Shown one piece after another: positions 2,501 to 43,872 of a stretch of DNA of 64,000 bases. Below the pieces are notes generated by a model that was given only the letters and a program-made list of their open reading frames with translations, made no database searches and was not told the DNA's origin. A program made the translations under genes and the position numbers. Source of the DNA: Verpa conica (lineage: Eukaryota; Ascomycota; Pezizomycetes; Pezizales; Morchellaceae); the NCBI GenBank assembly GCA_033030425.1, contig JAUFSD010000005.1, forward strand, positions 1,105,001-1,169,000, written 5' to 3'. Numbering within the stretch: position 1 is the first letter of the stretch; every line of letters begins with the position of its first letter.

Positions 2501-4849
2501 GGAGAGAGGAGTACCCGGATACTCTAGAGGCTACTAGCGCAGTCTCTGGGGTTTCTGGTGGCGTCAGGAGACAAGGCTTTTGCAGCAAGCATCAGGAGGC
2601 CTGGGAGACCCAGGAGACATGGGACAGAGCTTAGACAAGCTTTGTGTCAGAAGACAAAAAGCATCTTGCTGATGCAAGCAGTACCTATCTCCCAGTGGCT
2701 GTACCAATACAAAAACCTCATGTTTGATGTGTCAATGTGATTCCCAGAGAACCTCCTAGTGCAACAGTGGCAGCAAGACCTCCAGGACACCTAGCAAGCC
2801 TCCAGCAGCCTCCTACTAGTCACCAAGCAAAAAATCTAGTACCTGTACCAATACAAACACCACTTGCTCAACACATTGACTGGACTTCAAGCTGCCCCCA
2901 AATGCTACAGTAACGGGCAGGCAGGCAGTCAAGCGGAGAGCAAGCAAGAAGGAGGCAGTAAAATAGATATCTAATAAGTATATACAGATTGTTGGAATGA
3001 GTGACACTCTGTGAAGTTAAGTGTGGCGAATGCAAGGTGTGGCAACACCGGAGGAATAGAAGTCCGGATGGTCCGGCAGGGTAACCAGACGGAGGAATAG
3101 TATAACCGACGGAAGGAAATTCTACCCGAGTATCGGGAGAATGGTATGGTAACGGATGGGTCTTTACTTTGTATTGGGAATACAGGATGTTTTCTATGTT
3201 GGCACATTTGTAACTATATAAGCAGGCTTCTTCTGCGTCTTTGCTTAGGTATCAATCAAGCTTGTTCTTTAGTTACATCTATCTTCACTACACACTGAGT
3301 CTATTGTTTAAAACAGATAACCTGTATATGCATTGTACATTTAAAGTGATTTGATTGGTTGTTTCTGGTGTTTTTGTTTCATTTGTAAGTTTTGTTTCAT
3401 CATGGAAACAGGTTTTGTTCTGAATCCTCTGACTTCATTCCCAGGCCCCCAATGACGTATTATTTCTAGGCCTTAAGCAAGCATCAGGCTCTAACTCCAG
3501 TGAAGGCTAACCTAAACACTTTTACAGGTAGATACTAGTGAAGTGGGGGTTACTAAATGCTCAGCAGGAGGGCCCGACTGGCGAGTACATAAGCGCTAGA
3601 GAGTGGGAGAGGGGGGGGATAGAGGGGGGAATAGAGGGGGGAATAGAGAGGAGATAGAGAGAAGGATAGAGAGGGGAAGATAGAGAGGGGAAGTAAAAGA
3701 GGAGTGAGAGAGGAGAGGGAGCAAGAGCAGAGAGAGAAAGGGGGCAGGGTTTGCTCCATACCAGCATATACAGATATGAATCCTATTTTAATAACAGGGT
3801 CTCCAGCATCCGGCCTTTGGCCGGATACCCACTTGTATAGATTAGATAGTATAAAAAGAATAAAGGATAGAGGGTTAAGGCGCTTCTAGACACAACACTG
3901 TGTTCTACTATTATTGAAGCTTTCCTGGCATTTCCTGGACTACTAGCGTCAGCCAAGCAGGTATATTCTTATATATAGATTAGATACAACATTGAGAATA
4001 GAGAATAGAGAATTGAGACTCTTCTAGATGCAACTTTTTGTTCTACTCTTATTGAGGCTCTCCCGGCATCTTCCGGACTGCTAGCATCCGCCCTGAGATC
4101 TCCCAGAGATGACGTACAGCGTAAAGCGCTTGTGGGAGGGTAGGTTTGCAAAATTGTTGCCCCGCTTACCCCACTCTCCAGGAGAGCAGGGCGGAATCTC
4201 CGTTTTTGCTGATGTATTTTCTGATGGATAGTCAGCGTGCTCTTAAGTTAGTTGTATCTTGTGGCCTACACTATATCACACTATCTCCCTTGAAACTACC
4301 TGAGGCTCAGGATACTCAGGAAAGAATTTAAAAAGTTTTGCTGATGCAAACTAAAAGCAGAACATAATCAAAAGTAACTCCAAGAATTCTAGTGTTCATC
4401 ACGGGGGACTTGGTCCACCAAACTCCTCAAGAAACCGCGCCAAGAAACCGCCTCAAACCACTCTACAAGGCGGGGCGGTTCCGGATTTTGAGCAAAGGAC
4501 AGGGAAGACACGCATCTCAGGGCCCCAATTAGAGCAAAATCGATATATACAGCCTTTGGAGACTGCAATTGAGCTCCAAGGCACCATGGAAAGCGTATGG
4601 AAGGCGTATCAATAGTGGTATATACATAGTGGTACAGAAATAGGACTCTCCCCAGGGTGGAACCGCATCAGCAAACCTGCAATTGTGTCCCGACGCAATT
4701 GGTGTAGCAACTGTTGCATCACAGGAAGTCACCCGCGTCACAAGCATCCTCAGCACCCCAAGCGTCACCATACCACTGCCAGTGCCAGGAGCGCCCCACA
4801 AGAGGCTCTGGGAACCGTACTACTTGAAAAATTAAGTTTTTTGTGAGAG
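2501..4849. other. Intergenic, no gene; contains a polypurine tract
   Basis: I see no supported gene. At 3598-3735 there is a polypurine tract made of GGGGGGATAGA and GAGAGGGGA units; its open frames are low-complexity artefacts. The phrase CATCAGGAG/GCGTCAGGAG recurs near 2560-2610 and again at 5.65-5.77 kb and 7.85 kb, so this region belongs to the same repeat landscape as the 5-8 kb block. Confidence 0.45.
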
Positions 4850-4929
4850 AACTATTGTTCCCTCCTACCCGCAGATTACTAGTCTTTATTAACTACCGTT
4901 CTCTTCAGAAAAACAAGCGAGGTTTTGGA

Positions 4930-5150
4930 GGTGCGTTCCGCCAACCCTAACCCTACTTGGATACACCTAACCTTGCTTGGATATCCCTAACTCTACCCCT
5001 ATTCCTCCAGGGACTTCGCCAAAATTCTCTAAGTCCCTGAACACACCACACCATACCCACCTCATCGCACCACACACTACGCCTACCCCCTACCCCCTAC
5101 CCCCTACCCCCTACCCCTACCCCCTACCCCTCTCCCTATTTCTCTATTTC
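4930..5150 (-). repeat. Inverted relative of the 2.3/7.5 kb repeat, ending in a CCCCTA tract
   Basis: On the minus strand this contains a GGTAGGG tandem tract (plus strand 5083-5135), then a GGGACTTAGAGAATTTTGG motif, in the same order as the repeats at 2.3 and 7.5 kb. A short telomere-like CCCTAACCCTA lies at about 4944-4954 and is too short to be a telomere. Confidence 0.5.
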
Positions 5151-5227
5151 TATTTGAACAGTAAAAGCTAACTTATATGCAGGCTGTCTTGTTTCCTTTC
5201 ACCCGTGTCATGACGCGTTCTACCGAC

Positions 5228-5512
5228 GCGTCGTGCCAGCAGCAAGACCCTCGAGACCTCCACCAGGCAACAGCAGCAGAACCTCCTAAGCAGCAGCAGC
5301 AGGACCCCCTAAGCGACAGCAGCAGGGTCCTCGAGACCCTCCAGGCGACAGCAGCAGGACTCTCGAGACCCCCTCCAGGCAACAGCAGCAAGACCTCCTA
5401 AGCAGCAGCAGCAAGACCCCCTAAGCGACAGCAGCAAGACCTTCGAGACCCCCCCCAAGCGACAGCAGGAGGACCTCCTAAGCAGCAGCAGGATCCTCGA
5501 GACCATTAGGGT
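5228..5512 (+). repeat. CAG-rich minisatellite
   Basis: Imperfect tandem units alternate CAGCAGCAGCAAGAC, CTCCTAAG or CCCCTAAG, and TCGAGACC. Reading frames on both strands are open but encode only low-complexity Gln/Leu/Ser repeats, so I do not call a protein. Confidence 0.75.
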
Positions 5513-12872: not shown

Positions 12873-13769
12873 TTACCCCTTTATAACCCCTCTTACCCAC
12901 CTCTCTCCAAAGACCCTCACAACTGCCCTAAAGCCTCTCGCCTCCGCCAGTTTCACCGGCGTCAAACACCACTCTCCGTCCGCCGTCACATCCGCCCCCC
13001 CTTCCAATAGAACCTTTACAACCCCCAAAACACCAGCCATCGACGCCATGTGCAATGGCGTATACTTGTAGTTATTACCCACATTTACTGGGGCCCCCGC
13101 ACCCAATAACGCTTCTACGACAACCCTCGCACACGTTGTCCCTTGAGAAACAGCAATGTGCAACGGCGTATCCCCTTTATTATTCTTCGCCCCCAAGTCA
13201 ACAGTGTACTCTAGCAGCAGCCTCAGCATCTGCAGTTCTTCCTCCCATGTACGGAATGGTAACCAGCTCAGCATGCGCTTTGACGCGGCAGCAGCAGCAT
13301 ATGCGACGGCCTTGTGGGCCGCGGTATCGCCGAAAGCATCGCCGATATCGCATCTTGCGCCAGCGTCCAAAAGAAGACGGACAACCCCCTCGTTACCCTG
13401 GTCCACTGCATGGTGGAGCGCGGTGGAACAGGAAGGGGAGGGTCTATTGCGTGTGTGTGTGCAGTGCGCATTAACGTCAACTCCGTGCGAGAGCAGAAGG
13501 CGGACCAGGGGAATGTGACCCTTGAGTGAGGCCCATTGAAGGGCCGTCAGTGTCTCGTTCCTAGAGAGGGTGACGGGACTGTTGGCGAACGTTTGAAGGC
13601 GGGGTGCTAGTAGGGCGTTAAAGCGACGGTTTGTAAGGAGGAGAGAGTGGATGTAAGAGGGACGGTCAAGATTGTGAGCTATGAGGATCAAGAGCTCATT
13701 TGGAAGAGTTAGGAGTGTAGTTTGCGCCGGGGTTGGCGGTGACTGGGAGGCAGAGAGAGAAGAGCCCAT
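12873..13769 (-). CDS. F-box and ankyrin-repeat protein
   Basis: A single-exon 298-residue protein. Residues about 20-60 form an F-box (LTLPNELLILIAHNL, then a Leu-rich helix and FNALLAPRLQ), the segment that binds Skp1 in SCF ubiquitin ligases. From about residue 70 there are four to five ankyrin repeats with the usual TALHHAV/TPLHIAV/TPLHMAS helices and VVRLLLDAGA or VVKVLLEGGAD ends, the likely substrate-binding part. An Ala/Ser/Lys/Trp-rich loop of about 25 residues (about 157-180) interrupts the repeats. The predicted role is substrate recognition for ubiquitination; the substrate cannot be told. GC content and codon use are clearly higher than in the surrounding AT-rich sequence, consistent with an unmutated gene. 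The start is the first Met of the frame; the Gly-Ser after it could permit N-terminal modification, which is speculative. Confidence 0.93.
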   Translation of the reverse strand: MGSSLSASQSPPTPAQTTLLTLPNELLILIAHNLDRPSYIHSLLLTNRRFNALLAPRLQTFANSPVTLSRNETLTALQWASLKGHIPLVRLLLSHGVDVNAHCTHTRNRPSPSCSTALHHAVDQGNEGVVRLLLDAGARCDIGDAFGDTAAHKAVAYAAAAASKRMLSWLPFRTWEEELQMLRLLLEYTVDLGAKNNKGDTPLHIAVSQGTTCARVVVEALLGAGAPVNVGNNYKYTPLHMASMAGVLGVVKVLLEGGADVTADGEWCLTPVKLAEARGFRAVVRVFGERWVRGVIKG

Positions 13770-13799
13770 ATTTTGAGTTGAGACTTAGCGTAGTGCCTT

Positions 13800-28715: not shown

Positions 28716-29396
28716 TTAGTCGTAAAAGCGTTCGTTAGCGTCTAAAATTACACCTACGCGGAATAATCGTACATCTCTATCAGATGAATTTGGTGGGGAC
28801 TGGGAGAACCTGGCCCATGCGCTAGATGACTTCCTCAACATCCACGGCACTATTGGGATACCGACAAGCTTATCCGAACTATCACTGACACGGTCGGTAT
28901 TAGCGCGGCAATATGGGCAAGGGAATGAATCTGGCCAGTGGGCTTCATGCTCAATCCGTGACCACCACAATTTCTTGGTGCAGCTCACACATGCCCCATG
29001 CGTACAGTTTAGAAAGATAACTTTCTTGAAACGGCGGCTGCAGAGCTCGCATATAGAGCCTGTGCTTGTATCGGAATCAGAGGACGAAGAAGCAGATCCG
29101 TGCTCGGAGTACGGTGGAATTGTATCAAGCTCGAACTCTGACATATCACTATTGTTCTCAGATAAAATCTCTTCACCGGGTCTAGGAGCAGGGTTAGTAC
29201 TTATAGACCGCATTATCTCTTGTAGTGTTTGTGGATTCATCACAGCTGGCAGTTGTGTGAGACCTGAAACGGTGCTCAAAGTGTGACCTTCCCCTACTAT
29301 GGTGGGAAGTATCCTCGGTGTAGGCGGGGTAAAATCTAGGGCGTTATTGTCAGTATCCTCCTCTTGAGTACTCGCGTTAATGGTATTGTTACTCAT
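28716..29396 (-). CDS. RING-finger protein (probable E3 ubiquitin ligase)
   Basis: A single-exon 226-residue protein. Residues 116-163 form a C3HC4 RING: Cys116-x2-Cys119, Cys131-x-His133, Cys136-x2-Cys139, Cys160-x2-Cys163. Such RINGs bind two zinc ions and recruit E2 enzymes. The region before it is acidic and Ser-rich (YSEHGSASSSSDSDTSTG), and a Trp/Arg-rich segment (WMLRKSSSAWARFS) follows. The N terminus (MSNNT) and a PQTLQEIM segment at about 55-62 resemble the N terminus (MTNNT) and PQTLLSII of the protein at 30.3-31.0 kb, hinting at shared ancestry or domain swapping. No membrane segment is seen. The 20-residue gap between Cys139 and Cys160 is long but acceptable. Confidence 0.8.
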   Translation of the reverse strand: MSNNTINASTQEEDTDNNALDFTPPTPRILPTIVGEGHTLSTVSGLTQLPAVMNPQTLQEIMRSISTNPAPRPGEEILSENNSDMSEFELDTIPPYSEHGSASSSSDSDTSTGSICELCSRRFKKVIFLNCTHGACVSCTKKLWWSRIEHEAHWPDSFPCPYCRANTDRVSDSSDKLVGIPIVPWMLRKSSSAWARFSQSPPNSSDRDVRLFRVGVILDANERFYD

Positions 29397-29795
29397 TTTG
29401 GTTGGTGTGATTTAGGTGCTTGCGATAATGTGGAAGTTTTGCTAGTAGCCTTCTACCTACTTATATAGTGGTTCCTGAGATCCGCTATTCGATCGGGAAA
29501 TGATATTGCCTACTTGAATCGGCAGGAGAGATGACTATTTCAAGAATTTATATGATTCAAGATAGCTCATTCGCCTACGTAAAAACTAGAATGTGTGTTT
29601 GCTTCTAAAACTGTTAGGGTATAATTGACTTTCAACTTTCAATTGATATTGGGTAATTATTTTACTGATTCAAAAGATATATAAGGCCACAAATCTAGGA
29701 ATAAGAAGATCTTATATTTACTGGTATATTATACTTAAAAAATTAGCACAATAGCCCTAATCTATAAGTACCACAACTTTCAATTCAGTTGACTA
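29397..29795. other. Intergenic, likely promoter region
   Basis: AT-rich sequence upstream of the RING gene (minus) and of the small plus-strand ORF at 29796; a divergent arrangement. No clear motif. Confidence 0.35.
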
Positions 29796-37461: not shown

Positions 37462-38703
37462 ATGTCCGTCAACAACCCACTCCCTCAGCCTCCACTCTCT
37501 CCCCGCCCTCCATCCTATCGCCCTTTACCTCCTCCTCGCGATTCCTTGGGCAATGGCTCGCCCCGCCCACCACCATATGTCTCTCGATTGTCAATGCCGC
37601 CTCCGTATGAGCGCGGGGAGCACCCGCCGCTACCACCAACACCCACAGCACCACCGGTTCCACCAAGGCCCGGCGTCACTTCTGGAAGCCCTAGAACAGA
37701 TGATAAGGAATTGCCATCACTGCCGACGGTGGAGGGTATAGAGCAGGTGGTGGGTGAAAGCTTACCTGCTACACCGTTACCGATGGAGGAGCACATGGCA
37801 ACAGGAGGGCAAGGGGAAACCCCCGAACGGCCACTACCGGTGACTCCAGACGATACGCAGATTTCTCATGAGGATAATACCCAGCAATTAGTGTTTGGGA
37901 TTGCCATAGCTTACGAGCGCCCACTCCCTGCTCTTCCGGGTGGGAGGTTAGTGCCTCGAGCCGCGTATGTCCCTGGGTGGGAATTTATTCAGTCGCAGGC
38001 CTATGTGAATCTGGAACCTCCGTTACCCGCGCTCCCAAATATTGCAGAGTCTACTGATGACATGAGGCCTCTACCCCCACTCCCGGATGAGGCTCCGGGT
38101 TGGGTATACGTCAACGAGCGACCTCTCCCGTCGACTCCAGGCGAGGATCCAAGGACCCGCCCACTCCCGGCGCCTCCAGACAGCACACCTGATGGGACTA
38201 CGTCGCTTCTTCTGGTAAAACCTACTCGACCGCGGGTGGCCCACTCAAGCTCGGATGGGGACGCGCGTCGAAAGGCGCAGGCGGGAACTGATACTACTCC
38301 GCTGCTCCCGCCTCTACCGGGTGCGCGTGAAAGAATACCTCCTCCTGTGATGGCTTCGAATGAGAGAAGAGGTATAGAGGGCGCACGAAGACACTCATGC
38401 GGGAGCGAGGGCGCCCAGCTTTTACGTGAAGAGGATACTAGGGGCCGTAGACGGTGTATAGTCAAGGAGATCGTGGGGGGATTGAAGCGGAGAGGAGCGA
38501 GTGGGGAGTCATCGACCGAGAGGGGGAAGAATATAGTGGGGCCAGAGAACAGGGAGATTTCTACAGGGAGAAGGAGGGAAGAAGTGACGAGGAAGCCGGT
38601 TGTGTCAAGGAGGCATAGTACAGGACGACGTGGGAGGACTCCAGACCAGGAAGCTGCTCAAGGGGTACTGGGTATCCAGGAGTTCTTTGGTAAGGAGTGT
38701 TAG
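37462..38703 (+). CDS. Proline-rich protein with SH3/WW-ligand repeats
   Basis: A 413-residue single-exon protein. Residues 1-75 are dense in proline with PPPY motifs (RPPPYV, MPPPYE), the ligand of WW domains such as those in Rsp5/Nedd4 ligases. From about residue 120 to 250 a short motif recurs at 15-30 residue spacing: ERPLPVTPD, ERPLPALPGG, EPPLPALPN, MRPLPPLPDE, ERPLPSTPGE, TRPLPAPPDS. These are typical class I/II SH3-binding cores. The C-terminal third is basic (Arg/Lys/Ser/Gly-rich). It looks like a scaffold or adaptor in signalling, polarity or ubiquitin-ligase recruitment; this is inference from motifs. It ends 28 bp before the direct repeat flanking the transposon, so the element sits in its 3' untranslated region. 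Confidence 0.75.
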   Translation: MSVNNPLPQPPLSPRPPSYRPLPPPRDSLGNGSPRPPPYVSRLSMPPPYERGEHPPLPPTPTAPPVPPRPGVTSGSPRTDDKELPSLPTVEGIEQVVGESLPATPLPMEEHMATGGQGETPERPLPVTPDDTQISHEDNTQQLVFGIAIAYERPLPALPGGRLVPRAAYVPGWEFIQSQAYVNLEPPLPALPNIAESTDDMRPLPPLPDEAPGWVYVNERPLPSTPGEDPRTRPLPAPPDSTPDGTTSLLLVKPTRPRVAHSSSDGDARRKAQAGTDTTPLLPPLPGARERIPPPVMASNERRGIEGARRHSCGSEGAQLLREEDTRGRRRCIVKEIVGGLKRRGASGESSTERGKNIVGPENREISTGRRREEVTRKPVVSRRHSTGRRGRTPDQEAAQGVLGIQEFFGKEC

Positions 38704-38731: not shown

Positions 38732-38746
38732 GGTAGACCTCTAGCG
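38732..38746. repeat. Left 15-bp direct repeat (candidate target-site duplication)
   Basis: GGTAGACCTCTAGCG is found here and again at 43858-43872, immediately outside the two inverted-repeat ends. It contains the imperfect palindrome TAGA-CC-TCTA. The next base (T) is also shared, so the duplication could be 15 or 16 bp. Confidence 0.85.
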
Positions 38747-38787
38747 TACGGAGGCCCATAGCGACCAAGGCGAAGTAAATTCAGAGT
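38747..38787 (+). repeat. Left terminal inverted repeat (41 bp)
   Basis: Starts TACGGAGGCCCATAGCGAC and ends GTAAATTCAGAGT; differs from the reverse complement of the right end at two positions only. Confidence 0.92.
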
Positions 38788-38980
38788 GCGAGATTGTGGA
38801 GTTGTGAAGTAGTGAAAATTGAAATTGTGTAATTGTGTAATTGTGTTAGTGAAATTGTGAAATTGCAGAGTGTTGCTTAGAAATTAGAATGTGGTTGTTT
38901 AGGTATGAGTATTTCTCTGACTGGGTGTAATTTTGAGCATGGGGTTCCGGAGACTCGCTTGCAGCAGGCTCAGGCCGGTA

Positions 38981-39080
38981 ACATCCCACTCAGACCGTGA
39001 ACATCCCACTCAGAGCGTGAGCATCCCACTCAGACCGTGAGCATCCCACTCAGATCGGTAGCATCCCACTCAGGTAGCAA
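38981..39080 (+). repeat. 20-bp tandem repeats in the transposon left arm
   Basis: Five units of CATCCCACTCAGACCGTGAG type, with a looser continuation to about 39145 (CAACCATCTCACC). Such subterminal repeats often bind transposase or an element-encoded DNA-binding protein; here this is a guess. Confidence 0.8.
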
Positions 39081-39187
39081 CCATCCCACCTCCCCAGTGC
39101 GCAACCATCTCACCTGCATCTCACTTCTCCAGTGCGCAACCATCATCGCTACACCACCTCCTGCTGTACCAGTACCACCAACACTCA

Positions 39188-39798
39188 ATGTCCAAATCTA
39201 CTGCACCCACCCAGTTCCTCTATCCTAATGCACCCTATGGTTTTAAAAAGGATGGCACTCCCAGAATGAGGCGTGCTCCTGGTACAGGACCCCAGTTTAA
39301 GGGGAAACCCCTTAAGCCCCTTAAAGCGCCTGCACCACCACCACCTACCTATCAATGCCCCACCAACTGTGGGCTCAGCTTTGCAGATACTAAAGATCCA
39401 CAAAATTCTCTGCTAGTGCATGTGAGGTACAAGGCTAAAAAAGGCTGTGAGCTACACCAAACTGAGCTTGATAAAATAGTGGCGGCCAGAATAACTGATT
39501 GTAAGTCCAATAATATTTTTTTAAAGATATTACTAATAAAATCTATACAGCTGAGATACTTAGAGCAAGAAAAAACGCACGCCAGAGAAGATATAGAAAA
39601 AAGAATCTAGAATGGGTTGAGTATAGAAAAAAACTTTCCCGTGGTAGGGAAAAGGCAAGAGAAATACTTGGAGCTGGTGGTGGCAGGGAAATGAAAGAGG
39701 AAGTGGAAGAAATGGCAGAGGAATTTGTTGAGAAGTGGGATATGGAGCTAGAAGCAAAAAAATTGAAAGAGAATCAGGAAATTATTGTGATTGATTGA
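39188..39798 (+). CDS. Transposon accessory protein A (zinc-ribbon-like, basic)
   Basis: Two exons, 39188-39500 and 39551-39798, with a 50-nt intron (GTAAGT donor, ACTAAT branch, ATACAG acceptor) give 186 residues. Residues 1-55 are basic and Pro/Lys-rich. At about 56-100 a Cys/His segment (QCPTNCGLSF...LLVHV...GCELH) could bind a metal. Residues about 105-186 are highly charged, first Arg/Lys-rich (ARQRRYRKK), then Glu-rich and probably coiled coil. A DNA-binding or transposase-partner role is likely from its place in the element. Without the intron the frame would stop early and lose the coiled-coil part. No known family recognised. Confidence 0.75.
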
Positions 39799-39902
39799 TA
39801 GATAGATAGATATTGTTATAAGTTTTTTCTATTTAAATAAGTATTTTTATTCATCTGTAGCTCAAGTACTTGTTGTCTGCTTCAAGTACTAGCGTTAACG
39901 TA

Positions 39903-41775
39903 CTAGTAATTATCATCCTCCTCTCTAAGCCTATCGATAATATGAATATACTCTGGTTCCATATTGTCCAAATAATGGTCACTTTCAAGCTCTTGAGTTA
40001 CCAATACGTACGTATTTGGCGTCCAGTTATAGGTCTTCTCCGGTTTTTGACATAGCAGAAGAGTTCCTCCAGTTTGAAGAAACTGATCTGCAAGTTGACG
40101 TAGATATAAATATGCAACACGATGGACTGGTGTGGAGGAATCTCCCATGTGCATACTAAATGTAATCGGAGTTTGTATTCCAACATTATGAAGTTCTTGC
40201 GAGCACCAGCTAAGCGTAGCTGCAGGGAGATATTCGTTTGGATCTAGTAAAACATTAACAGCTATTCAAATATAAATTAATATTGATAAAGTTAAAGTTT
40301 ACCGTATTCCTCTACATCTACTATTAGTCGGTTAAGAGCACTTCGATCGGGTACAAGATCATAGTCACTAACACCAGTAGGAGGGTCGTGATACAAAAGT
40401 ATAGGTTTTCCTGTCGGTAATTCAGGGCGGTTTTTTTGATATCGAATAGTATGTGCATTCCACAAATCGACAAATTCGTACACTTCCTGTCTTACCATTG
40501 GCAAGTATACATACAACATAGCTATTTGATCTGCAAAGCTCCCCGTATACTCTCCGGCGTCTCTCATACTATCAAAAAATGTCTATCAATTGTGGATTAG
40601 ATTATTATTTTAACTTTGTAAAGCATTATATTTACCTTCCATACGATTGTTTGGCTTTTACTCATTTGCCGCCACCAAGACTCGATGCGCTGGTTCAATA
40701 CAGATGTACCATACCAGTACACGTCAGTAAGCTGTACACTGGGATTGAGGGCAGTATGAAGTTGAAGATGTGCATTAGCCATCATAGTAGTTTCACTACC
40801 CCGATCAGAGCGAATTGTGAATGGTAATGTATTTGTAGTATCTATTAGATCCAAATATTGCCGCAGAATTGCAACCCCTGTTGCAGCGGATATTCCTACG
40901 TGGATCCAAGTGATAAATCTAGAATCATAAATTTAGTTAATTTTATAATGTGAGTCAAACTATAGCTGCTTGGTATAGACAGAGGGCTTACCTTGAATAA
41001 GCATCTATTCCGGCATATATTTCAATACCATAATGTGTCAATTTATGATGTCCATCAACTGACAACACACGGTTTGGACCTGCTACTCTAAAAGTCCCAC
41101 GTGGTACATTTTGTTGTCCAAATTGCCGTTCAGTAACTCCAATTGGATCCAACTCCCGTAAAATCTCATACATACGATTACGAGCAACTGGAATTCCCGA
41201 CTGCTTTAATTTGTAATAGGAAAGTCGCCGACCATAGAGTACATTTTGTCCAGATGCAAGTTGTTCCTGCAACGCTACCCGCATTATCATATTATGCTGT
41301 GGGATATTGGCTGCATCTGTACGACGTCGCATGCCAAGTGCTAGTCTAAGCTGTCTCATCCTATATAAGACATGCATTAGTAGTTGTTTCATTTATGCAT
41401 AAATAACAAAACATACTGTCGTAGACTGATTTCAAATCCATTACGACTTAAAAAACTTAGAATTTCGGTATCTCTTAATCCATACTGGTAAAATAAACGC
41501 CACATTATTTTTTCAACTCCGGTTCCAGCCAGCAATAGAGACATTTGATGCTTGCGATAGCCCCATTTGTGTAGTGCATTTTGCATTGTACGGGAATTGG
41601 GGTATGATGTAGAATTGCTTGGTGTTGCGGGGCCCATTGTGGTAACTTCCGGATATAATGACTGTAGTTGAGTAATTGTATCCGATAAAGTATTATTTTC
41701 AACAATATACCAATACCAGATTACATACCGGTATGGTTCTAGTGCAGTATAAGCTGGTCGGCCAGAGGATGACAT
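39903..41775 (-). CDS. D-D-E integrase-type transposase
   Basis: Five exons on the minus strand: 41775-41417, 41360-40992, 40918-40636, 40582-40303 and 40261-39903, giving about 549 residues with frame kept throughout. The N-terminal part is helical and likely DNA-binding. The catalytic core reads VLSVDGHHKL (first Asp), FTIRSDRGSE (second Asp, 59 residues on) and VLNQRIESWW (Glu, 41 residues on), followed by FFDSMRDAGEY and RPELPTGKP, which match the integrase core-domain family found in many animal and fungal mobile elements (rva_4 in Pfam, from memory). The last acceptor could also be 18 nt downstream without frame change. It should cut and join DNA at the 41-bp ends of this element. The start chosen is the Met before SSSGRPAY; an upstream in-frame Met exists. 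Confidence 0.85.
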
Positions 41776-41899
41776 AGTTGATAAAGCTTGATAGTTATAA
41801 AAAATAAGATAAATAGAAGAGGATTGCTCGTACTTATATACTTTTAATTTTACATAATTAATTTCTCGGATCATTTTTTGCCTTTATTATATTTCTAGT

Positions 41900-43696
41900 A
41901 TGTCTTTACAACGTCCATCAATCAATCACTATGATCTATATTGCTCTGGTCCAGAATGCGTACATCTTAAACCTGAAATAGTAGCTACGGGGCTTTTTTC
42001 TCATCTTCAGGTTGAGCACATACCATATCCACTTGGAATACCGGAGCGCTCATGTGATACATGCCATCAAATACAACCATACCAACACATTACCCGAACT
42101 AATCAATACTGTAGTCCGTCAGTTAGTATTACTAGAGATATACTCGATAGGTATTTATCATATAAACCATTTAATTAATACTTACATTTAACAATTAAAG
42201 TGCTATTGATCCAGAACTACAATCCTCTTCTCAGTCTTTATACCCTAGTATTTCAATTGCACAGCAAAAAGCATCAGGTACAATATCTAATCAACGCTTC
42301 GCCAGCCATCAAATTTTTCAAGATGCAATTTTAGCAGCTAAAGGTAGTCCAAAAGTAAGTCAATTAGCTATTGGACGTGGCTTTCCTCCTATACGAACAC
42401 AGCATACCAATTCCAAACACCAAGTGCAAAGTCAAGGTCAAGGTCGAGGTCGAGGTCGAGGTCGAGGACAAAAACATAGTCAGCAGAACCATAATTATAC
42501 CATACCAACTATACTTCCATCGCCAACTCCAAATGAATGGTTAATTAAATTATTAGTAGCTGAAGTACATCCGAACACAAATTTTAGTAAGAGGATATTT
42601 CGGGAAAGTGTTGATTCAGAAGTATGGCGTCCATCAGAAGCTCTTTTGAACAAAGTTATTCCCAGTGGAGCCCGTGAGTGGAGTAGATTTTTTGAAGAGA
42701 ATCTAGTCGAAAATATTGGGTTATGGCAAAGAGAGTTTTCCCGTCCTATACATAATGATGGACTTGGATGTAAGTTTATTTTATATATTCTTTATAATAA
42801 TATCTACAATTACTGATAACTAGTTTTTTATAGGGATTTGGATAAGCGAAGTCTATTTACTTAGTTCTTGGAGTAAGCGACTAGGTGGTGTAAGGTTACC
42901 TGAGGCCGAAACGCAGGAAACTACGACTTTAAAAGCGATTTTAAACAACTTTTTCCCTTTTTCGCAGCATAAAAAAATAGATACTTCTATTGTCTATCTT
43001 GCGATTGAATATGAATATAGACTTTATTCCAATAATATGGAAGAACTAGAGCTATCATTACCGTTAGTATCTCCTAATTGTCAATATGTAAGTATACTAG
43101 TTACTCATATAATACATTCTAGTACTCAACCAAAAATTAGTTCCCATACAGACGATGAAATACCGGTACAAGATAGTTATATTGAGCTAGACACCGAGAT
43201 TGATGAACCAGATCTTTATATAGAGGAGCAAAGAAATAGTTTGCTTCCTATAGATTTAATCAAATCTTCTGGTACTACACTATCCCTAGAAACTTTACCC
43301 GTTGCGAAATCAATACCGCAATTGATAGCAGAACAATTAGGAACAGGGAAAGAAATATCAAATAAAGTAAGTAAAACTTTTAATCAATATTTAAAGAATA
43401 ATTACTAATCTAATTTAAATTAGCGTACTCATTCTGATATTGCTATCTCTTCAAGCCCTCCAAGTAAAAATTGTGGCAAAGTATCGGCAACTGCATCACT
43501 TTCTGGAAAAGGGAAATCAGGTTCTACTATAAAAAGAACACGGTCTGGTACACGTACTATTAAAGATATTGGCAGTACTAGTGGTGTTATTGTAGATAAT
43601 ATTTCAAGTGGCTCGGCTATTAGTACTACTTCTATTATGACTAGAAAACGTAGTGCTAAAAAACACGGGAAAGGGGAAAAGACAGGATCAAAATGA
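41900..43696 (+). CDS. Transposon accessory protein C (Cys-rich, RG-repeat)
   Basis: Four exons, 41900-42150, 42201-42769, 42834-43366 and 43424-43696 (introns 50, 64 and 57 nt, GTATTT or GTAAGT donors), give 541 residues. The N terminus has paired cysteines (YCSGPECVHL and RSCDTCHQ, then NQYC) with intervening His, a probable zinc-binding module. Residues about 180-195 are an Arg-Gly repeat (GQGRGRGRGRGQ), typical of nucleic-acid binding. The middle (about 205-330) is a conserved-looking fold with WRPSEALL, REWSRFF and WIWISEVYLL. The C-terminal 90 residues are Ser/Thr/Lys-rich with possible nuclear signals (TRKRSAKKHGKGEK). The gene is divergent from the transposase, about 125 bp apart, so the two probably share a promoter. 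Not recognised as a known family. Confidence 0.8.
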
Positions 43697-43734
43697 TATT
43701 GGGTATATTGGTGGACAGGGAAATTGTGGGTTTT

Positions 43735-43800
43735 TATTTTTGTAGGCTTTTCATTTTTTCATTTTTTCATTTTCTCATTTTTTCATTTTCTCATTTTCTC
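43735..43800 (+). repeat. TTTTTCA repeats in the transposon right arm
   Basis: Six to eight units of CATTTTTT/CATTTTCT lie just inside the right inverted repeat. The left arm has a comparable A/T repeat (GAAATTGTG-type units at about 38809-38873). Confidence 0.8.
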
Positions 43801-43816
43801 GCAATAAAAACAACCA

Positions 43817-43857
43817 ACTCTGAATTTACTTCGCTTTAGTCGCTATGGGCCTCCGTA
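43817..43857 (-). repeat. Right terminal inverted repeat (41 bp)
   Basis: Its reverse complement begins TACGGAGGCCCATAGCGAC and matches the left end at 39 of 41 positions. Confidence 0.92.
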
Positions 43858-43872
43858 GGTAGACCTCTAGCG
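43858..43872. repeat. Right 15-bp direct repeat (candidate target-site duplication)
   Basis: Identical to 38732-38746; together they mark the insertion site of the element. Confidence 0.85.

What the first reader, a model, noticed from the sequence alone, without database searches (positions are those of the whole stretch)
38747..43857. Apparently intact 5.1-kb DNA transposon with an integrase-type transposase and two accessory genes
41-bp inverted ends (39/41 match), 15-bp flanking direct repeats and three spliced genes whose introns can all be placed with frame kept (549, 186 and 541 residues). The transposase has DGHHKL, SDRGSE and QRIESWW around its D, D and E. The gene set (integrase core plus a Cys-rich RG-repeat protein plus a basic coiled-coil protein) is not one I can match to a named superfamily.
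Basis: partly seen in the sequence, partly recalled or inferred. Interest (0 to 1): 0.9.

Follow-up and report, generated by a model that had tools for sequence, protein, structure and literature searches.

The report
Fungal IS3EU transposon, unusual 15-bp duplication
This is an apparently intact fungal "jumping gene" that fits a known but little-studied superfamily (IS3EU); what is unusual is that this copy duplicated 15 bases of its target where the other readable copies duplicated 6 to 8, and that it carries two partner genes that selection has kept.

Summary
At 38747-43857 lies a 5,111-bp DNA transposon with 41-bp inverted ends (39/41), a perfect 15-bp flanking repeat, and three genes that splice into open frames (186, 543, 541 aa). 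The claim "no named superfamily" does not hold: the transposase is an integrase-type DDE protein (Pfam rva_4; only NCBIfam match IS3, below cut-off), the ends read TACGG...CCGTA, and sister copies with a readable duplication have 6-8 bp. These are published marks of IS3EU. A second copy (94.5% identical) has all three genes with the same introns, though its gene C is split by an insertion; dN/dS is 0.15, 0.11 and 0.20, which points to purifying selection on all three. Gene C relatives sit head-to-head with the transposase in three further lineages of this genome; gene A relatives occur in one, and one lineage with both ends has no room for A. Possibly new: of 29 end pairs, 12 show exact 6-bp and 2 exact 7-bp duplications, 5 match with one mismatch (6-8 bp), 9 show none, and only this one has 15 bp, about one helical turn longer. 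That pattern is published for IS481EU, not, as far as I saw, for IS3EU.

The parts
38732..38746 (.). left copy of the 15-bp target duplication GGTAGACCTCTAGCG
38747..38787 (+). left terminal inverted repeat, starts TACGG
   Evidence: 39/41 complementary to the right end; same letters at both ends of copy C18:57470-63793
38969..39089 (+). subterminal array of about five 20-bp repeats (CATCCCACTCAGACCGTGAG), upstream of gene A; copy C18 has 20 more bases there
39188..39798 (+). gene A, 186 aa (exons 39188-39500, 39551-39798): a C2H2-like Cys/His pattern seen by eye (no Pfam support) plus a basic, charged C-terminal half
   Evidence: dN/dS 0.15 against copy C18; homologues; Pfam
39903..41775 (-). 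transposase, 543 aa (exons 41775-41417, 41360-40992, 40918-40636, 40582-40303, 40243-39903); rva_4/rve integrase core with D, D, E
   Evidence: (dN/dS 0.11); fold of homologue P0002
41900..43696 (+). gene C, 541 aa (exons 41900-42150, 42201-42769, 42834-43366, 43424-43696): two N-terminal Cys pairs, RG repeat, conserved W-x-P and other Trp residues, basic C-terminus; head-to-head with the transposase
   Evidence: dN/dS 0.20; homologues
43748..43797 (+). 8-bp TTTTCATT array near the right end
43817..43857 (-). right terminal inverted repeat, ends CCGTA
43858..43872 (.). right copy of the 15-bp target duplication

Best explanation
An autonomous DNA transposon of the IS3EU superfamily. Its retroviral-integrase-like transposase pairs the two 41-bp ends, frees them and joins them to staggered positions in target DNA; host repair fills the gaps and leaves a duplication. 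Among IS3EU-type copies in this genome the stagger is normally 6-7 bp; in this insertion it was 15 (or 16) bp, about one helical turn more, so that both joins would lie on the same face of the DNA. Shown here: anatomy, membership marks other than a tree, relatives, low dN/dS in all three genes, the duplication lengths. Inferred: the cut-and-paste steps (from the enzyme fold and the related Styx element); that the 15-bp repeat arose in the strand-transfer step; that protein A (C2H2-like pattern, basic half) binds the element's own DNA, perhaps the 20-bp array beside its gene; that protein C (two Cys pairs, RG repeat, basic tail) is a standing partner of the transposase, perhaps in end binding or complex assembly.
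For: Ends and 15-bp repeat. Transposase: rva_4 E 5e-28, rve 1.4e-4, the latter below cut-off; NCBIfam IS3 4.1e-7, below cut-off; D, D, E invariant in 21 sequences; model of homologue P0002 (mean pLDDT 82.8) matches TnsB, Rous sarcoma virus integrase, IstA and foamy virus integrase at E 3e-5 to 7e-4 (TM-scores by query length only 0.18-0.30). Sister copy C18:57470-63793: identical ends, 6-bp duplication CCCCAG, all three genes, same introns, dN/dS 0.15/0.11/0.20. Duplications: 29 end pairs; 12 exact 6 bp, 2 exact 7 bp, 5 with one mismatch (6-8 bp), 9 none, 1 exact 15 bp.
Against: The 15-bp duplication is one case of 29 and has no second example here. Published IS3EU sequences could not be compared (Repbase not held), so no tree. 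The protein search with C found nothing, though low-complexity words may have crowded it. The transposase finds no solved structure by sequence. The C18 copy's gene C is split by a 1,236-base insertion, so only the window copy is seen with all three genes whole.
Confidence: 0.85

Rival explanations
1. The 15-bp repeat was already a tandem duplication in the target, and the element inserted exactly at its junction with no duplication of its own, or the repeat arose by slippage during gap repair.
For: Only one pair has it; 9 of 29 pairs show no duplication, so insertion or later change without one may occur; some copies show odd repair at one end, with their own terminal bases repeated before the flanking match (C3:112236-112785, C24:420298-420844).
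Against: It needs insertion exactly at the junction plus the absence of any 6-bp duplication. The 15-mer occurs nowhere else in the window and each flank matched only itself in the genome search. The length falls in the 15-16 bp class published for IS481EU (PMC10045372).
Confidence: 0.25
2. The element belongs to a separate, undescribed superfamily.
For: Gene set A + transposase + C is not described in the parts and passages of the three papers I saw; 15-bp duplication; C has no Pfam family beyond a low-complexity match.
Against: End sequence, long inverted repeats, 6-8 bp duplications in the readable sister copies, IS3-like DDE transposase: all agree with published IS3EU.
Confidence: 0.07
3. 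Genes A and C are passengers caught by chance and not part of the transposition machinery.
For: A is missing in lineage C11:1011003-1016641, where the transposase frame ends about 117 bp from the element's end; A lies in the other orientation relative to the transposase in C19, C20 and C21. Other transposase loci gave no C match at E 0.01.
Against: Both have low dN/dS between two copies. C is found head-to-head with the transposase at seven places: window, C18, C11 (two), C15, C24, C19.
Confidence: 0.2

Closest known systems
IS3EU (with GingerRoot), eukaryotic DNA transposon superfamily
   Same: TA..TA ends (TAYGG..CCRTA in TET-positive rust-fungus families), inverted repeats over 30 bp, usual 6-bp duplication, IS3-like DDE transposase with a divergently oriented partner gene
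   Different: This insertion has a 15-bp duplication; partner C shows no alpha-kinase match (the partner named for TET-positive rust IS3EU); extra gene A with a 20-bp repeat array
IS481EU (parabasalids)
   Same: Integrase-type transposase not well separated from IS3EU in the published tree; discrete duplication lengths of about 4, 15 and 25 bp even within one family (PMC10045372)
   Different: Ends TNT..AYA or TGT..ACA, a single gene, no TACGG ends
Styx of Zymoseptoria (linked to IS3EU by its authors; PMC10853768, passages)
   Same: Fungal, 36-bp inverted repeats, 6-bp duplication, integrase gene plus further genes
   Different: About 7.9 kb with four coding sequences, two of them known only from that genus; its proteins could not be compared here

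Membership tests
IS3EU | Ends TA..TA, in TET-positive rust families TAYGG..CCRTA | tested here: met
   TACGG..CCGTA in window and C18 copies
IS3EU | Inverted repeats longer than 30 bp (TET-positive rust families) | tested here: met
   41 bp, 39/41 in window; 41/41 in C18, reported as 42 with one flanking base
IS3EU | Usually 6-bp target duplication | tested here: met
   Over related copies of this genome: 12 exact 6 bp, 2 exact 7 bp, 5 with one mismatch (6-8), 9 none, 1 of 15 bp among 29 end pairs. The window copy itself does not meet it (15 bp); the source says 'usually'.
IS3EU | IS3-like DDE transposase | tested here: met
   rva_4 5e-28, rve 1.4e-4; NCBIfam IS3 4.1e-7, under its cut-off
IS3EU | Groups with Repbase IS3EU transposases in a tree | not testable with these tools
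   Repbase sequences are not held
IS481EU | Ends TNT..AYA or TGT..ACA | tested here: not met
   Ends are TACGG..CCGTA
IS481EU | Discrete duplication lengths about 10 bp apart in one family | tested here: inconclusive
   6 bp (C18) and 15 bp (window) in two close copies; only one long case among 29 pairs
IS481EU | Single gene | tested here: not met
   Three genes with low dN/dS

The most novel reading that the evidence does not exclude
IS3EU transposases, like IS481EU, can join their ends to target DNA at discrete spacings one helical turn apart (6 and 15-16 bp). The variable stagger would then be a shared property of this integrase clade, and IS3EU carries a conserved head-to-head partner protein (C) that might govern it.
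Probability: 0.45. Interest if true: 0.6.

Novelty: new variant of a known kind. Interest (0 to 1): 0.45.

Why it matters
Duplication length is used to tell transposon superfamilies apart and reflects the geometry of the transposase-DNA complex. Two close copies with 6 and 15 bp suggest that the length is not fixed in IS3EU, and give a three-gene element on which the open question raised for IS481EU (how one enzyme makes staggers a helical turn apart) could be tested in a fungus. It also shows that IS3EU elements of this fungus are multi-gene units with a conserved second protein.

Tried and rejected
Rejected: Ginger, KDZ/Plavaka, Kolobok and other superfamilies (recalled, or named in the papers), because ends, duplication lengths and transposase profile fit IS3EU; no sequences of those superfamilies were compared. 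Rejected: protein C as an alpha-kinase, since Pfam gave no such match for C or for the C15 and C19 homologues at E up to 5 (HMMER's filters drop most matches above about 0.1). The EBNA2_Core match of C (2.7e-4, below cut-off) falls on the RG repeat and was set aside as low complexity; the DUF5946 match of A (0.0014) is below cut-off; the Clr5 match of the transposase N-terminus is 7.3e-4 for an exon piece but 0.077 for the whole protein, both below cut-off. PDB sequence searches gave nothing for the transposase, only implausible matches at E 0.18 or more for its alignment, nothing for C. The protein search with C gave nothing. No empty site or second copy of the flanks was found. Elements C15 and C24 gave no second end or duplication. 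Copies at C1:3112732, C16:1482692 and C10:1298658 matched the window element only near its ends and were not used in the duplication counts; right ends at C4:2196525, C16:1381944 and C21:1337569 had no left partner within 1.5 kb. Dropped from the counts: alternative pairings inside counted elements (L048 701 bp, L081 507 bp), neither with a duplication.

Full report
What is there. The window holds a 5,111-bp element at 38747-43857 with 41-bp inverted ends (39/41) and a perfect 15-bp direct repeat abutting both ends. The 15-mer occurs only at these two places in the window. The three predicted genes splice into open frames: A (+, 186 aa), transposase (-, 543 aa), C (+, 541 aa). A lies left of the transposase and points towards its 3' end; C lies head-to-head with it. 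A 20-bp tandem array (about five units) precedes A. A reading frame of 429 aa without a Pfam match at E 0.01 ends at 38703, 43 bp left of the element.

Copies in the same genome (45.8 Mb in 25 contigs). A second full-length copy, C18:57470-63793, has identical ends, a 6-bp duplication CCCCAG, and all three genes; its gene C is interrupted by a 1,236-base insertion. The two copies differ at 276 of 5,063 aligned bases. The eight introns have matching splice sites, and no stop falls in the compared codons of C18 (7 codons with gaps were skipped, 3 in A and 4 in C). dN/dS (Nei-Gojobori style, own script) is 0.15 for A, 0.11 for the transposase, 0.20 for C. With 19, 85 and 104 changes behind them the values are rough, but all are far below 1. 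Three more places (C1:3112732, C16:1482692, C10:1298658) hold stretches related only to the end regions.

Transposase. The spliced protein matches Pfam rva_4 at 5e-28 and rve at 1.4e-4, and NCBIfam IS3 transposase at 4.1e-7, below that family's cut-off. Homologue P0002 (named as a Penicillium lagena protein) matches IS481 at 1.5e-6 and IS3 at 1.8e-6, both below cut-off. 48 proteins matched among the 7,998 candidates scored in the large search, best 53% identical over 57% of the query; those with an organism name are, from recall of taxonomy, ascomycete fungi. The three catalytic residues are invariant in 21 aligned sequences (the query and 20 that I chose from the 48) and in 28 of the 48. A model of P0002 on those 28 (mean pLDDT 82.8, pTM 0.64) matches TnsB, retroviral integrases and IstA, 34 chains at E up to 0.001; TM-scores by query length are low (0.18-0.30).

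Classification. Kojima and Bao 2023 (PMC10045372; parts 1-3 of 5 read) state that complete IS3EU families always have TA..TA ends and usually 6-bp duplications. Kojima 2025 (PMC12730594; passages only) gives TAYGG..CCRTA ends, inverted repeats over 30 bp and 6-bp duplications for TET-positive IS3EU of rust fungi, with the transposase and an alpha-kinase gene in opposite orientation. The element meets these marks except that its own duplication is 15 bp. The Styx paper (PMC10853768; passages) describes an active fungal element that its authors link to IS3EU, with 36-bp inverted repeats and 6-bp duplications. I could not compare sequences with Repbase.

Duplication lengths. I collected 29 pairs of TACGG-type ends in this genome from pattern searches and fetched flanks. 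They cover several related families, not only this one. Pairs were picked by eye from the listings, and one search listed only the first 100 of 257 places, so the set is not complete. In the searches the reversed-pattern control gave 10 places against 34, 163 against 257, 3 against 43 and 11 against 84; single places are therefore often chance, and pairing was what counted. Where the ends were scored, the pairs matched at 20 to 30 of 30 terminal bases; a few pairs with far-apart ends were not scored this way. 23 pairs were tabulated: 12 exact 6 bp; 2 exact 7 bp; 4 with one mismatch (6, 7, 7, 8 bp); 1 exact 15 bp (the window copy); 4 none. Six more pairs: 1 with one mismatch (6 bp), 5 none. Totals of 29: 12, 2, 5, 1 and 9. 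Some of the nine may be wrongly paired or decayed ends; two of them show the match only after extra bases. As a control, among 506 cross pairs of flanks from different copies 8 had an exact match of 4 bp or more, the longest 7. The 15-bp case is thus real but single. It lies about one helical turn above the norm. Kojima and Bao report the same discrete steps (about 4, 15 and 25 bp, even within one family) for IS481EU, and note that the steps are close to one turn of the helix. A full-text search for IS3EU with TSD and '15 bp' found only that paper, and in the three parts I read it assigns the long lengths to IS481EU, IS481 and IS1202, not IS3EU; most subscription papers and Repbase Reports are outside the library.

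Accessory genes in other lineages. A search with C found it, besides the window and C18, at C11:1013153, C11:1351852, C15:1334122 and C24:653150, each head-to-head with a transposase. Reading the frames beside transposase C19 showed a fifth, more distant one (BLASTP 2e-15 against the C15 protein). The two C11 places and the C15/C24 pair are each close copies, so these are three further lineages. Shared features are two Cys pairs at the N-terminus, a W-x-P motif, further Trp residues and, in three of the four aligned proteins, a basic tail; the fourth (C19) is incomplete. Other transposase loci of the genome (one search lists 24 rva_4 matches, several per locus) gave no C match at E 0.01, and their flanks were not read. 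A search with A found relatives at C19, C20 and C21 (BLASTP 5e-8 for C19), which are near-copies of one another. They lie downstream of a transposase on the same strand, within 1 kb in C19 and C20 and about 4 kb off in C21, whereas in the window A and the transposase face each other. In C19 frames repeated at 50-bp steps lie between the two genes. A fragment of A lies at C1:3113139. Two proteins of the large database also resemble A. The C11:1011003-1016641 element has no room for A beside its transposase. So C is the steadier partner and A an extra.

How it most likely works. Cut-and-paste integration by an integrase-type complex is established knowledge for this fold, not shown here; the Styx paper infers non-replicative movement for its element. 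The target stagger is read from the flanks. Roles of A and C are inferred from Cys/His patterns seen by eye, charge, position and dN/dS only.

Verdict. Ordinary in class (IS3EU), unusual in one insertion (15-bp duplication), and informative about the gene content of fungal IS3EU.

Noticed in passing
L073/L107 (C11:1011003-1016641; frame at C11:1014949-1015275, minus strand): A related 5.6-kb IS3EU-type element with TACGG-type ends and a 7-bp duplication GTTACTT carries a Tet_JBP dioxygenase frame (Pfam PF12851, E 7.6e-10, above cut-off). TET-positive IS3EU in Ascomycota was reported only from Tuber indicum (PMC12730594, passage).
   Followed up: partly
L024 (C3:112236-112785), L079 (C24:420298-420844), L033 (C4:2196525), L034 (C16:1381944): Right ends followed by a second copy of their own last 6-10 bases (one with a base change) before the flanking sequence; in two of them a 6-7 bp match to the left flank comes only after it. 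May be left by nested insertion and loss, or by faulty repair.
   Followed up: partly
L097 (C24:84314-84767): A short IS3EU-type element sits inside what looks like the right inverted repeat of another one, with 6-bp duplication GGCCTC.
   Followed up: partly
L009 about 4005-5240 (C18 copy, inside gene C): A 1,236-base insertion with inverted arms; a sequence with the same start (ACATCAGCAAAAACAAA, then a GC-rich inverted arm) also lies where the C24 element stops matching C15, near C24:650424. Family not identified.
   Followed up: no
C5:1170746-1171120, 1.7 kb beyond the right edge of the window: Another rva_4 transposase fragment (E 1.1e-14), about 3 kb from a TACGGCGGCACGTAGC end at C5:1174138.
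   Followed up: no
window 12873-13784 and 28716-29411, minus strand: Ankyrin-repeat protein with a weak F-box-like match, and a RING-type zinc finger frame below Pfam cut-off; they look like ordinary host genes.
   Followed up: no
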